Shown: piece after piece, positions 42,601 through 48,600 of the stretch
Layout: each line of letters begins with the position of its first letter
How positions within the stretch are numbered: position 1 is the first letter of the stretch
Assembly: GCA_903813345.2 (NCBI GenBank)
Contig: CAIIXF020000012.1
Coordinates: forward strand, 15,372,020 to 15,436,019
Length of the DNA stretch: 64,000 nucleotides
From: Owenia fusiformis
Taxonomy: Eukaryota; Annelida; Polychaeta; Sabellida; Oweniidae
Direction of reading: 5' to 3'
Made by a program: the position numbers and the translations under genes
Notes under the pieces: model-generated
What the model saw: the letters and a program-made list of their open reading frames with translations, nothing else
What the model was told of the DNA's origin: nothing
Database searches by the model: none

Positions 42601-45600
42601 AATACTGAACTTTCCAATACAATCTTCTCCAAGAGTTCAATGAGTTCATTATAATTACCTGTGGTCACTAAATACTGAACTTTCCAATACAATCTTCTCC
42701 AAGAGTTCAATGAGTTCATTATAATTACCCGTGGTCACTAAATACTGAACTCTCCAATACAATCTTCTCCAAGAGTTCAATGAGTTCATTATAATTACCT
42801 GTGGTCACTAAATACTGAACTTTCCAATACAATCTTCTCCAAGAGTTCAATGAGTTCATTATAATTACCTGTGGTCACTAAATACTGAACTTTCCAATAC
42901 AATCTTCTCCAAGAGTTCAATGAGTTCATTATAATTACCTGTGGTCACTAAATACTGAACTTTCCAATACAATCTTCTCCAAGAGTTCAATGAGTTCATT
43001 ATAATTACCTGTGGTCACTAAATACTGAACTTTCCAATACAATCTTCTCCAAGAGTTCAATGAGTTCATTATAATTACCTGTGGTCACTAAATACTGAAC
43101 TTTCCAATACAATCTTCTCCAAAAGTTCAATGAGTTCATTATAATTACCTATGGTCACTAAATACTGAACTTTCCAATACAATCTTCTCCAAGAGTTCAA
43201 TGAGTTCATTAGGCAGGTCAGCTGTCATGAAGGCTTTTACTGTCACAGATATGTCTTCTGGATCTTGGGTCTCTGACAGGGCAGTTTGCACAACCTAGAA
43301 ATAACAAGATATAGACATAACATATAATACTCTAGAATACAAGAGACTTAAAAGATCGAAAGATAAGTAAGATATCACTGTAGCAATCTGAAGATGGCCT
43401 TTAAGTTAATCACACCATAAAATAGCATACTTTACAAAAACTTATTTCAACACATTATGTACATGAGGCAATTTACAAACAGTACTCTTGACTGAAATCT
43501 TAGTTCATTTGGATATAATATTTGAAGGGAATATGACTTTCATCATTATATTATGATCTTACTTGATCTATCAATGGTCTCCTGAATTCATTATCCTCCT
43601 GTAAAACTATAGCCCAGAGGTCAGGGTCACGTCTTTTCACTAAGTAGCGGGATTCACTCTTGAACAGGGAGTTCTCATTGCACACCTACAACAAAGAAAT
43701 AACATATGCATGACTTCACATTTGTTGGTTACGTAAACACTGGGAAGTTTGAGGGAATACTGTATGTTCAATTTAAAATCTTCTTTGCACAGCATGTACT
43801 TAAATAAAAAATATAACATCCATACTTTTGACCTTAAATGACAGTTTTATAATTACATATTTCCAACTAGTTTTAACATATATTTTCAGATTAAATGTGA
43901 CGGATATGATATTGATTTCATTTTTTAAATTGAAATATTTTTGATATTGAAGCAAATGTACTTTAAGCATGTATTCAAATAGCCATCAGTTTCGGTGAGT
44001 GATGAGTTCGGTCCTCTTTGCATTAAATGCTCTGGATATCACAAGTTCATCATAAGGCAACACAAGTGCTGATTATAAAAGGAACAACACAAACCATTGA
44101 CAACTTCTAGAACCTTATCCGTTTTTGAAAATTGGACACTTGACTAAACGGTGACTAAACACATTACATCTTATCAGAAATATAAACTCTCAAAAGGGTG
44201 CAGAAATCAAGAATTTTGAAGAAATTACATATTTCCCCAAAGAAAACAATTTATTCAATAAGTCAATAATCCCCTACCTTAATCAGCTCATGGTCACACT
44301 GGCCACGCTCATAGGCGACACATGCTAGATGAGGGTCACGTTTTTCACAGTATTTACCCACAATCTTACTATCATAGAACTGGTTTTCCCTGAAAATACA
44401 AAACACGTTGGTTCACAAGGAATCAATTCATGCATTTTTAAAGTTCAGAAAGTAGTTTGGAAAGCAAAATTGTATTAAGAACCAAATACTTGGTTGTACA
44501 CTTAAAGCTTATTGAGGGTTGCATAAATTGAATCAGACTTCCAAATATTGAATTGTGAATAGGGTGTGAATTTTACATAATTTACAAGTCAGTAAAGCAG
44601 TTAGAATCATGGTGATCATAGCCCAATGCTTTATCTGTCATCATACTTGTCTGGGAAAATTAACTTCTTCCTATTCATTCAACTTGAAAATATGTAAGAG
44701 CAAAGATTTTCAAAAAAAATAAACTTACCGGAGGAATCTTTCTGGGTTGTTATTGCTGTCGATGTATATCTTGGCCAATGCATTATGGGTAGCGGGCTCC
44801 TGTTGACCTTCATGGATACGGGTCTCCAACCATGGTAACAACAATTTTAACCTACAACAAATCAAACAAGTTAATTAAGTAATCTAGCAATAATATTTAC
44901 ACTAAGGTGTACTAGTTGTAGGCTATTCACACTACAAACAAATGATTAGACCTCCCCCTTCTTTTTGTAATACATATGGACACTATGTCACATTTGTGCT
45001 AAATCATATTTCTTTAAACCATTGGGTTGAAAGTAAAAACAGTTCAAACCTGTTTCTCTTCTCAACTTCTTCCACAAGCTCATCAGTTGAGAACTGTCCA
45101 CGGACCACTAGGATAAGTTGCTTGATGATATCCTCTGCGCAATCAACATCCAAAAGTCCACCAATCACAACAGGGAGACGAGACGGGTTCACCTATAACA
45201 TGAAATAGGTCGCTTTACATTCCATGTGGAATATTGCATGATGTTGGCACATGTGTTAAATGGGATGGAGAACCCTAAACAATCACTTGTGAGCTAGAAA
45301 TATCTATCTAATGCAGTTTGAAGAATGCAGATTGAAATGTTGATCAGTCTAAAAAATACAAGGATTTTTTCTCTGTTTACTTGAGTTCAGTTGTTAATTT
45401 ACAAGTCAGTAAAGCAGTTAGAATCAGGGTGATCATAGCCCAATGCTTTATCTGTCATCATACTTGCACAAGATGTAAAACCTGACTGCTTATTCAACCC
45501 CCATGTGCATCTTTTGTCTAACATATAGGCCCAGAAAAATATTTATTTCAACATGCTATCTGAGACAGTATAGAGAAACAAAGTACTATTCTTTACCTTT

Positions 45601-48600
45601 TGCACATATATTTCTATGTACTTCTGCAGGTTGTTTCTGTATAGGTACAGCACCAAATCATGCACAAAGTCAAACCTATCGCACACGATGATCAATGGCA
45701 GTTGATCGGTTAGTTTGGCCTCCTTCAGGAAGTTCTTGACACGCTCAGGATCGTAACAGTTACTCTCACGGCAGATTCTTTCTGTTTCTTTAATCTGTCC
45801 AGTCTTGCAAGCTGCCTGGATGTATTTGAAGTGGACATCGGGATCCTGGCTAAAGTTTACAATCGATCCAAGGAAGTAGAAAAGCCCTATAAAAGATGAA
45901 CAACAAAGAAATCAATTGAAGAAAAAAATAGTTTAATTTGATTTGGTACACTGACAAAATCTCACACAAAGGATAAGTAAGTTTTCAAGCTAAATAAATA
46001 TACCCAAATATATAAATATTTTGAAGAAATGAATCTTAGCGTAACAAGTCAGTAAAGCAGTTAGAATCATGGAGATCATAGCCCAATGCTTTATCTGTCA
46101 TCACACTTGTCTGAATAAAACTAAAAGTTATTAATTCATGAAAGTGCATTTTAATCACCGCTACAGATATTTGAAGTTTTGCAAGAAAACTCAGGTCTTC
46201 CTCTAAAATTTCTTTATCCCCCAACTTGGATTACTTTCATCAAACAGCATTCAATTGCTGATATTGTGTCATTGTACACCAAGCAACATAAACAAAAGAA
46301 TTGAATTTCTACAATTGCGGAGAAGAATAGAGCCAGAGTAACACAATTATCTAAAGCCTCACCTTCGAAACTCTTGAAAGACTCAAATATCTCAATGAGA
46401 GCATTTGTTCCTAGTTGTTCGTGGTATTTAGTGGCTATCTGCACACAGACTTGTAGATTCTGTCTAATATTGGCCTGGAGCATAACCTTGACACACTCAA
46501 GGGAGTCTTCTACTGACAGGGAGCCAAAGTAGTTCACCAACCACTACAACATAATTAACATATATCTTTACTTATCTGTACATTTTGTTAGTATCAGGAT
46601 ATAAACTGACAGCCGTCATCCCAACTTTCAACATGAAGGACGAGATTCAATGATTGCAATATTTCTTCTGATGGACTTTTTGTTAAAAATTTTGGCCATC
46701 TCAAGATTATATGTTTAATAATGTCAACTAAAAATATTCTACATCTTTTGAACTTACCTCAGGGTTGAGCAAATGAGTATGAACAACGGCGCGTTTGATA
46801 TCATAGAGGTCAGTATAGTGTTCAAGTGCCCTCTGGAGGAGGCCTGCTTTCTCACAAAGCTGGGCAACGTGGGCTCTGTCATAGTGAGTGAACATCTGGT
46901 TTCCTAATATAGCATCTGCAACCTAAAACCAAACGAAACCAGAGATTAATTTCTTGTGATGCAGCTTAATTTTGTTAAATATACAAGAAATTATATACTA
47001 GCCTGTTCTCAACTGGATTGTTAACTCATATGGTGGGTTATTCTAATTTTCTAAATTCTAGGCCATGTTTAAGAGGGTGGTTTCCTAAAGCCGATGGACG
47101 AGTGCGCATCATTCTCGCGCATCTAACTTTCGGTTTCGGTTTCGATGCCGTGATTTTGTTATTTTACTGTATATTACTCAAATAAATAAAACTTATGTTC
47201 AAAATGAATCAAAATGGCTTTATAATATTTATTTGTGGTGAGAGAATTAGTTGCACGGAAAAATAAGACACTCTATTGTCGTAATTTTGAAACGTCTCGG
47301 AAACTCCTCACCAATTATCGCCCATCTAGAAACAAGATGCTGCATTGATGACGGGACGATTTCAGTCTCAATCGGGCAAACAGTGGAGAATCGTAGCATT
47401 AAACATCATAACAACTGTTTATGAAGGTAAGAAGTATCGAATTCAATATCATTTTCTTTTTGTAATCGATTGAAATCACCATATTTAAAGGTAGAAATCG
47501 CTTCCTGGTTCTCGATCGGGAATCGTTGTCATTTGCGTAATATTGATTTGATTGGAAAATTCTCATAAATTCCCTTGAAATTTAGTATTTAATGTAATAA
47601 TTTGGTATTTTAATAATAGATGGTAGTGTTATATATTAATACAATGGATTATTCTGTGATCGTATGCATATAATCACTGAAATTCTTCTCAAAATTACAT
47701 ATGAATTTATTTTGGGTGATCGATTCGTCATGACCTTGATCTTACAAAGCCCATGTTCAAACTCAACAGCTTTTCTTGTCCCAGAGACATCCCATGCGGG
47801 CAGAGTCGGGACATCTTAAACGAAATGTTAACTATATTTGACTGCCTATCACAGTAAAAGTACATTTTGATGTGGGCATGGGCAAAAAGATAATTTTGTC
47901 ATGGAAAATTACATGTACATGTTTCGTGTACATGTATTAAAAGTGTCTTGTGCGGGAGTACACGGCAATCACATGCAGTTATCATAATCAATAAATATTT
48001 GGGCACAGATAGTCCAACAATATTAGACCTAGCCTGGGGCCTGATTTCTTATCTGGCATGTCTTATGGCCCCGGCGTTGAACTAGGGTATGGATAAACAT
48101 GCTACGTGTACTGTACATGTGCCGTACTGCAGTATAGTCGAAACTGTACATTTATATGTTTACTGTATCGGTATTAGATATTATAGAACATCATATGACG
48201 TCTCAAGTTTCATTTTATTCTTGATATACTTTCAAACTTTTCCATGTATTTCAGATGACAAGTTACCCAAAACAACAAACAACGGTTTTATGGACCAACA
48301 ACAGTCGCATCAAAATGATTGGGAGGTTGAGGAAGTTATTATGATTAATGATAAATGATCATGCAATGCAGTTAGATCATTTAGATGACTGTCACGTCAT
48401 TGTCGACATAGGCCATACATACTTGTCCAGTCAAATGACCTGGAAGTTTTTGAGTACAGGTAATTGTATAAATTACATGTAATATATGTTTCAAGTCATT
48501 TAGATAGATGTTACACGGTATATCACCTTTGCCTGTGAAGGCAATGACTAGAGAATACAATAAATGAATAGACATTAAGGCAATCATTATATGATAATCA

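What the first reader, a model, noticed from the sequence alone, without database searches (positions are those of the whole stretch)
44584..46110. Three-copy C/D-box snoRNA-like family in three CLTC introns
A 67-nt unit occurs in the introns after exons 13, 14 and 16, always sense to the host. Each has C box RTGATGA, D box CTGA and a 5-bp terminal stem (ACAAG or GCAAG with CTTGT). Copies differ at only one to a few positions inside, while intron sequence just outside the stem is unrelated, which suggests selection on the RNA rather than recent duplication of introns. One copy has CTGA where the others have ATGA, a possible gain or loss of a D' box. A clathrin gene as snoRNA host is, to my knowledge, unusual.
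Basis: partly seen in the sequence, partly recalled or inferred. Interest (0 to 1): 0.85.

Follow-up and report, generated by a model that had tools for sequence, protein, structure and literature searches.

The report
Clathrin-intron snoRNA guiding 28S methylation
Three introns of a clathrin gene carry near-identical copies of a small guide RNA that probably directs a well-known chemical mark on the large ribosomal RNA; it is a new member of a familiar kind rather than something new in principle.

Summary
Observation confirmed: three 67-nt units lie sense to CLTC in the introns after exons 13, 14 and 16. A genome BLAST finds seven copies (a pattern scan gives the same seven): these three, three in successive RPS15 introns and one in an RPLP2 intron, 7 of 7 sense. 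D box, D', both antisense elements, four stem pairs and the C box bar its first base are identical in all seven; change is concentrated in a 6-9 nt D'-C' spacer. The D' element AGCAUUGGGC pairs 10 bp (one G-U) with 28S GCCCAGUGCU. The fifth-nucleotide rule points to the Cm listed for snR76 in yeast, snoR118 in Arabidopsis and SNORD88 in human. Rfam matches are non-significant. The D-side element has no convincing target in what I could read. New member of a known kind. CLTC as host was not found in three paper searches. Expression untested.

The parts
44584..44650 (-). C/D snoRNA copy CLTC_1, intron after exon 16
45401..45467 (-). C/D snoRNA copy CLTC_2, intron after exon 14 (G at the outer stem position; C at the spacer/C' border)
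46044..46110 (-). C/D snoRNA copy CLTC_3, intron after exon 13 (C box GTGATGA; spacer TCTCCA)
44390..44728 (-). CLTC intron 16 (host)
   Evidence: GTAAGT...TTTCAG
45193..45596 (-). CLTC intron 14 (host)
   Evidence: GTAAAG...TTATAG
45887..46362 (-). CLTC intron 13 (host)
   Evidence: GTGAGG...TTATAG

Best explanation
These are paralogous intron-encoded box C/D snoRNAs. After splicing of CLTC (and of RPS15 and RPLP2) pre-mRNA, exonucleases would trim the debranched intron to the 67-70 nt snoRNP protected by the stem and the C/D motif. The D' antisense element (AGCAUUGGGCU before D' box AUGA) pairs with 28S GCCCAGUGCU, and fibrillarin would methylate the C opposite the fifth nucleotide, the site listed for snR76, snoR118 and SNORD88. 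Shown: motifs, copy number in the readable genome, hosts, pattern of constraint, complementarity and register. Inferred: transcription, trimming, snoRNP assembly, methylation. The D-side element is conserved but its target is unknown.
For: Seven copies found, all intronic and sense, in CLTC (3), RPS15 (3) and RPLP2 (1). In the alignment 9 of 9 spacer columns vary against 4 of 61 others, Fisher p=1.1e-8 (spacer bounds drawn after seeing the alignment). Both antisense elements, D and D' are invariant, and the C box bar its first base. D' element: 10 consecutive pairs, one G-U, with own-genome 28S; 5 of 200,000 shuffles do as well in that register; predicted duplex -19.0 kcal/mol. The register fits: from the predicted C the bases at +17, +23 and +43 are A, A, G, as expected from Am3718, Am3724 and Gm3744 relative to Cm3701 in PMC5597630 (passage). 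snoR118, to which 2 of 4 weak Rfam matches belong, is assigned to 25S C2198 in PMC8053127 (passage); ceN54, a third, shows CACUGGGCUCUGA. The SNORD88 antisense oligo in PMC10911272 implies the element AGCACUGGGCUC (passage).
Against: No Rfam family reaches its gathering score in the window or in L007 and L008. The weak Rfam matches have E-values of 2.2 to 5.8, i.e. chance level taken alone, a microRNA model is among the four, and the snoR118 alignments run beyond the unit. D' is AUGA, not CUGA, and C' (UGAUUC) is poor. 38 of 400 shuffled D' elements reach the same score somewhere in the rRNA pieces held. The 28S used is a partial, interrupted copy; much of 28S is not readable here. Terminal-stem covariation is one pair only, and 147 of 500 shuffles equal it. 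No expression data.
Confidence: 0.86

Rival explanations
1. C/D snoRNA whose main conserved target is set by the D-side element (UUCUAACUGCUUUA), with the D' match secondary.
For: The D-side element is identical in all 7 copies and abuts a perfect D box; one 8-pair 28S candidate (UGAAGCAG, one G-U) exists.
Against: 269 of 400 shuffled D elements match the rRNA pieces held at least as well; nothing of weight in one own copy each of U2, U6 and U5 (one longer run near the U5 gene lies outside it, on the other strand); the 8-pair duplex is weak (-9.4 kcal/mol).
Confidence: 0.06
2. Non-functional remnants of a recently spread repeat or retroposed snoRNA.
For: Near identity of copies in unrelated introns means recent spread or conversion.
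Against: Only 7 copies found, none outside sense intronic positions; change is concentrated in the spacer and outer ends.
Confidence: 0.05
3. Hairpin-forming intronic RNA of another kind (for example a small regulatory hairpin) with C/D motifs by chance.
For: Naked RNA folds into a long hairpin joining the two antisense elements; for the core of CLTC_1, 36 of 1000 shuffles are as stable; for the 7 whole units z = -1.1 to -2.6.
Against: C, D, D', stem and pairing in register at the snR76/SNORD88 site are all present together.
Confidence: 0.03

Closest known systems
snoR118 (Rfam RF01424; Arabidopsis 25S C2198)
   Same: Element GCACUGGGCU next to its D' box, listed for the same rRNA site; best weak Rfam match
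   Different: 17.6 bits against a cut-off of 44, E 2.2; longer; D' CUGA; rest of the sequence not evidently alike
SNORD88A/B/C (human 28S C3680/3701)
   Same: Same element and site, from the oligo and tables in PMC10911272 and PMC5597630
   Different: One C to U in the element (a G-U pair), D' AUGA; the human host is recalled as C19orf48; whole SNORD88 sequence not compared
snR76 (yeast 25S Cm2197)
   Same: Listed for the equivalent nucleotide (PMC5344495; equivalence recalled)
   Different: snR76 sequence not compared here
ceN54 (Rfam RF01642, Caenorhabditis)
   Same: CACUGGGCUCUGA element shared in a weak match
   Different: 15.8 bits against a cut-off of 60, E 4.5

Membership tests
Box C/D snoRNA | C box RUGAUGA near 5' end and D box CUGA near 3' end | tested here: met
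   7 of 7 copies
Box C/D snoRNA | 4-5 bp terminal stem joining the ends | tested here: met
   34 of 35 cells paired; one compensatory A-U to G-C; covariation not beyond shuffles, 147 of 500
Box C/D snoRNA | Antisense element before D or D' with about 9 or more pairs to rRNA, target base at the fifth position | tested here: met
   D' element, 10 pairs with one G-U
Box C/D snoRNA | Stable 60-90 nt RNA bound by fibrillarin, NOP56/58 and 15.5K | not testable with these tools
   no expression or binding data
snR76/snoR118/SNORD88 target group | D' element directed at the last C of GCCC in GCCCAGUGC of LSU rRNA | tested here: met
   (complementarity and register only)
snR76/snoR118/SNORD88 target group | 2'-O-methylation of that C in this animal | not testable with these tools
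   no methylation data
snoR118 (RF01424) and ceN54 (RF01642) as Rfam families | score above the curated gathering threshold | tested here: not met
   17.6 bits against 44 and 15.8 against 60; so not filed as a member of either, only as aimed at the same site

The most novel reading that the evidence does not exclude
The two antisense elements are complementary to each other (GAUAAAGCAUUGGG with UUCUAACUGCUUUAC), so the D-side element, for which I found no convincing target, may be a built-in lock or decoy that holds the D' guide closed until the snoRNP assembles or the true 28S target displaces it; host choice (ribosomal-protein genes plus clathrin) would then set where the locked guide is made.
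Probability: 0.1. Interest if true: 0.5.

Novelty: new member of a known kind. Interest (0 to 1): 0.3.

Why it matters
If confirmed, it supplies a guide, in this animal, for a methylation listed in yeast, Arabidopsis and human, in a form that Rfam 15 does not recognise at its cut-offs. It is also a clean case of one snoRNA in seven introns of three genes that are broadly expressed by general knowledge, one of them (clathrin) outside ribosome biogenesis. Paralogues that agree in guides and boxes but are free in the D'-C' spacer show which parts are constrained.

Tried and rejected
That position is in a length-variable spacer, and its would-be guides, scanned only against the readable rDNA of L013 (no 28S), give at best 8-pair runs with one G-U in 18S. 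D-side element against the readable 18S, 5.8S and 28S pieces and one copy each of U2, U6 and U5: nothing beyond shuffles or of weight; U1, U4 and the unreadable part of 28S were not tested. More copies: a loose C-box-plus-D' pattern gives only the same seven, 0 in the reversed control. The D-side 18-mer with up to 2 mismatches gives 40 places: the same 7 exact, 2 with one mismatch and 31 with two, against 25 in the reversed control; I did not look into the 33 others. The loose C...D pattern is useless at genome scale (10,500 forward and 10,251 reverse places; reversed control 2,564 and 2,624). Stretches reading N could hide further copies. Retroposition marks (A tail, target duplication): none evident by eye in the 40-nt flanks. 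The model built from the seven copies, run on the window, L007 and L008, finds the seven it was built from and nothing else under E = 0.5. Papers: (snoRNA, clathrin heavy chain, host gene, intron) listed two papers, neither on the point by title; others (CLTC, snoRNA host genes; intronic snoRNA, clathrin) found none; (annelid and lophotrochozoan terms) gave nothing of use in the ten listed rows each.

Full report
What is there. The three units of the finding are real and at the stated places. In CLTC sense orientation CLTC_1 reads: stem ACAAG, U, C box AUGAUGA, CAGAUAA, AGCAUUGGGCU, D' AUGA, spacer UCACCA, C' UGAUUC, UAACUGCUUUA, D box CUGA, stem CUUGU (box names are mine, by the usual consensus). 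Mapping a recalled human CLTC protein onto the window places the units in introns 45887-46362, 45193-45596 and 44390-44728, all GT-AG. These follow exons 13, 14 and 16 if residues 1-83, which gave no hit, are two exons (recalled).

How many and where. The readable genome (498 Mb) gives seven matches at E up to 10. A degenerate C-box-to-D' pattern gives the same seven and none in the reversed control. The other four lie on C12, 38 kb beyond CLTC_3 on the opposite strand, and in a 1.4 kb stretch of C10. Exons around them are RPLP2 (tblastn hits L007 3602-3775 and 5358-5387; a middle exon is seen in the translation) and RPS15 (tblastn hits L008 9833-9901, 5618-5752, 5132-5236, 4459-4590, edges rough). 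Pfam agrees: of four peptides given, one of two CLTC exon peptides matches Clathrin PF00637 (the other matches nothing), RPS15 matches Ribosomal_S19 PF00203 and RPLP2 Ribosomal_60s PF00428. The RPS15 copies sit in three successive introns. 7 of 7 copies are sense to their host. Ribosomal-protein introns are usual snoRNA homes (PMC3412847, abstract and passages), and broad expression is named the primary requirement of a host (PMC3511168, abstract and passages), which clathrin fits by general knowledge.

Selection. In the alignment of seven, 9 of 9 columns of the D'-C' spacer vary (gap columns counted as variable) and 4 of 61 elsewhere: the two columns of the outer stem pair, the base before the C box and the R of the C box. 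Fisher p = 1.1e-8; columns are not independent and the spacer was bounded after seeing the alignment. Flanks of 60 nt are on average no more alike than shuffled ones, one comparison of 42 reaching 30/60. So the unit, not the intron, spread, and mainly the spacer is free. Two subfamilies show in the spacer: CLTC plus RPLP2 (TCWCC) and RPS15 (A-rich). CLTC_3 and the RPLP2 copy differ at 1 of 67 positions.

Target. The D' element pairs with 28S GCCCAGUGCU over 10 positions with one G-U. The fifth-nucleotide rule picks the last C of GCCC. In own-genome 28S the bases 17, 23 and 43 further on are A, A and G, the spacing of Am3718, Am3724 and Gm3744 from Cm3701 in the human table of PMC5597630 (passages), where SNORD88 is listed for Cm3701 (3680). 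Yeast snR76 is listed for Cm2197 (PMC5344495, passage) and Arabidopsis snoR118 for C2198 (PMC8053127, passage). That these three are one equivalent site rests on recall plus the shared element. The SNORD88 antisense oligo in PMC10911272 (passage) is complementary to UGAUGUCCAGCACUGGGCUC, the same element soon after the C box. Of the four weak Rfam matches in the region two are snoR118 and one ceN54, both aligned on this element, the fourth a microRNA model; all have E-values of 2 to 6 and would mean nothing alone. 5 of 200,000 shuffled elements do as well in this register, but 38 of 400 reach the score somewhere in about 5.8 kb of partly redundant rRNA pieces, so it is the register at a known site that carries the weight.

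What does not fit or is open. No Rfam family reaches its cut-off in the window or in L007 and L008. The D' box is AUGA and the C' box weak. The D-side element is invariant yet has no convincing target: 269 of 400 shuffles match as well, and one copy each of U2, U6 and U5 gives nothing of weight. Much of this genome's 28S is not readable here, so a target there is not excluded. The two antisense elements are complementary to each other and form the main hairpin in naked RNA; 36 of 1000 shuffles of the CLTC_1 core are as stable, so this is suggestive only. From the coordinates above, 157, 208 and 194 nt lie between unit and 3' splice site in CLTC_3, _2 and _1, not the 70-80 nt recalled for vertebrate snoRNAs.

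Verdict. Very probably a real, multi-copy C/D snoRNA family guiding (by inference) a known conserved 28S methylation. A clathrin host was not found in the papers that I could search, yet is ordinary in mechanism.

Noticed in passing
window 42441-43350: A 70-nt tandem array repeats the 3' end of a CLTC exon (residues about 1000-1022) together with its 5' splice site: nine [A/G]GGTAATT sites 70 bases apart, eight of them AGGTAATT, so the exon is followed by a row of competing donors; 70 is not a multiple of 3.
   Followed up: partly
G000 C10:25637692-25643704 (L009-L012): A 28S rRNA piece is interrupted by about 5.8 kb close to the conserved CTCTCTTAAGG site (the two matching query pieces overlap by 8 bases), as R2-type 28S-inserting elements do (recalled); the neighbouring rDNA is partial.
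   Followed up: no
L013 (C501 rDNA): One 18S unit spans the whole 1831-position Rfam model in only 1357 bases, i.e. lacks an internal stretch of roughly 470 bases.
   Followed up: no
window 33977-34032 and 36044-36099: 56-nt inverted repeat, 98% complementary, arms 2 kb apart between CLTC exons; looks like the ends of a DNA transposon.
   Followed up: no
G000 C2:10760910-10767757 and C514/C350: U2 genes in a tandem array of about 605-base period, and U5 genes in arrays of mostly about 1147-base period.
   Followed up: no
window 55520-57725: A repeat between CLTC exons: three copies of 147 nt at 89-91% identity to the reference, two of them extending to 294 nt at 94%.
   Followed up: no
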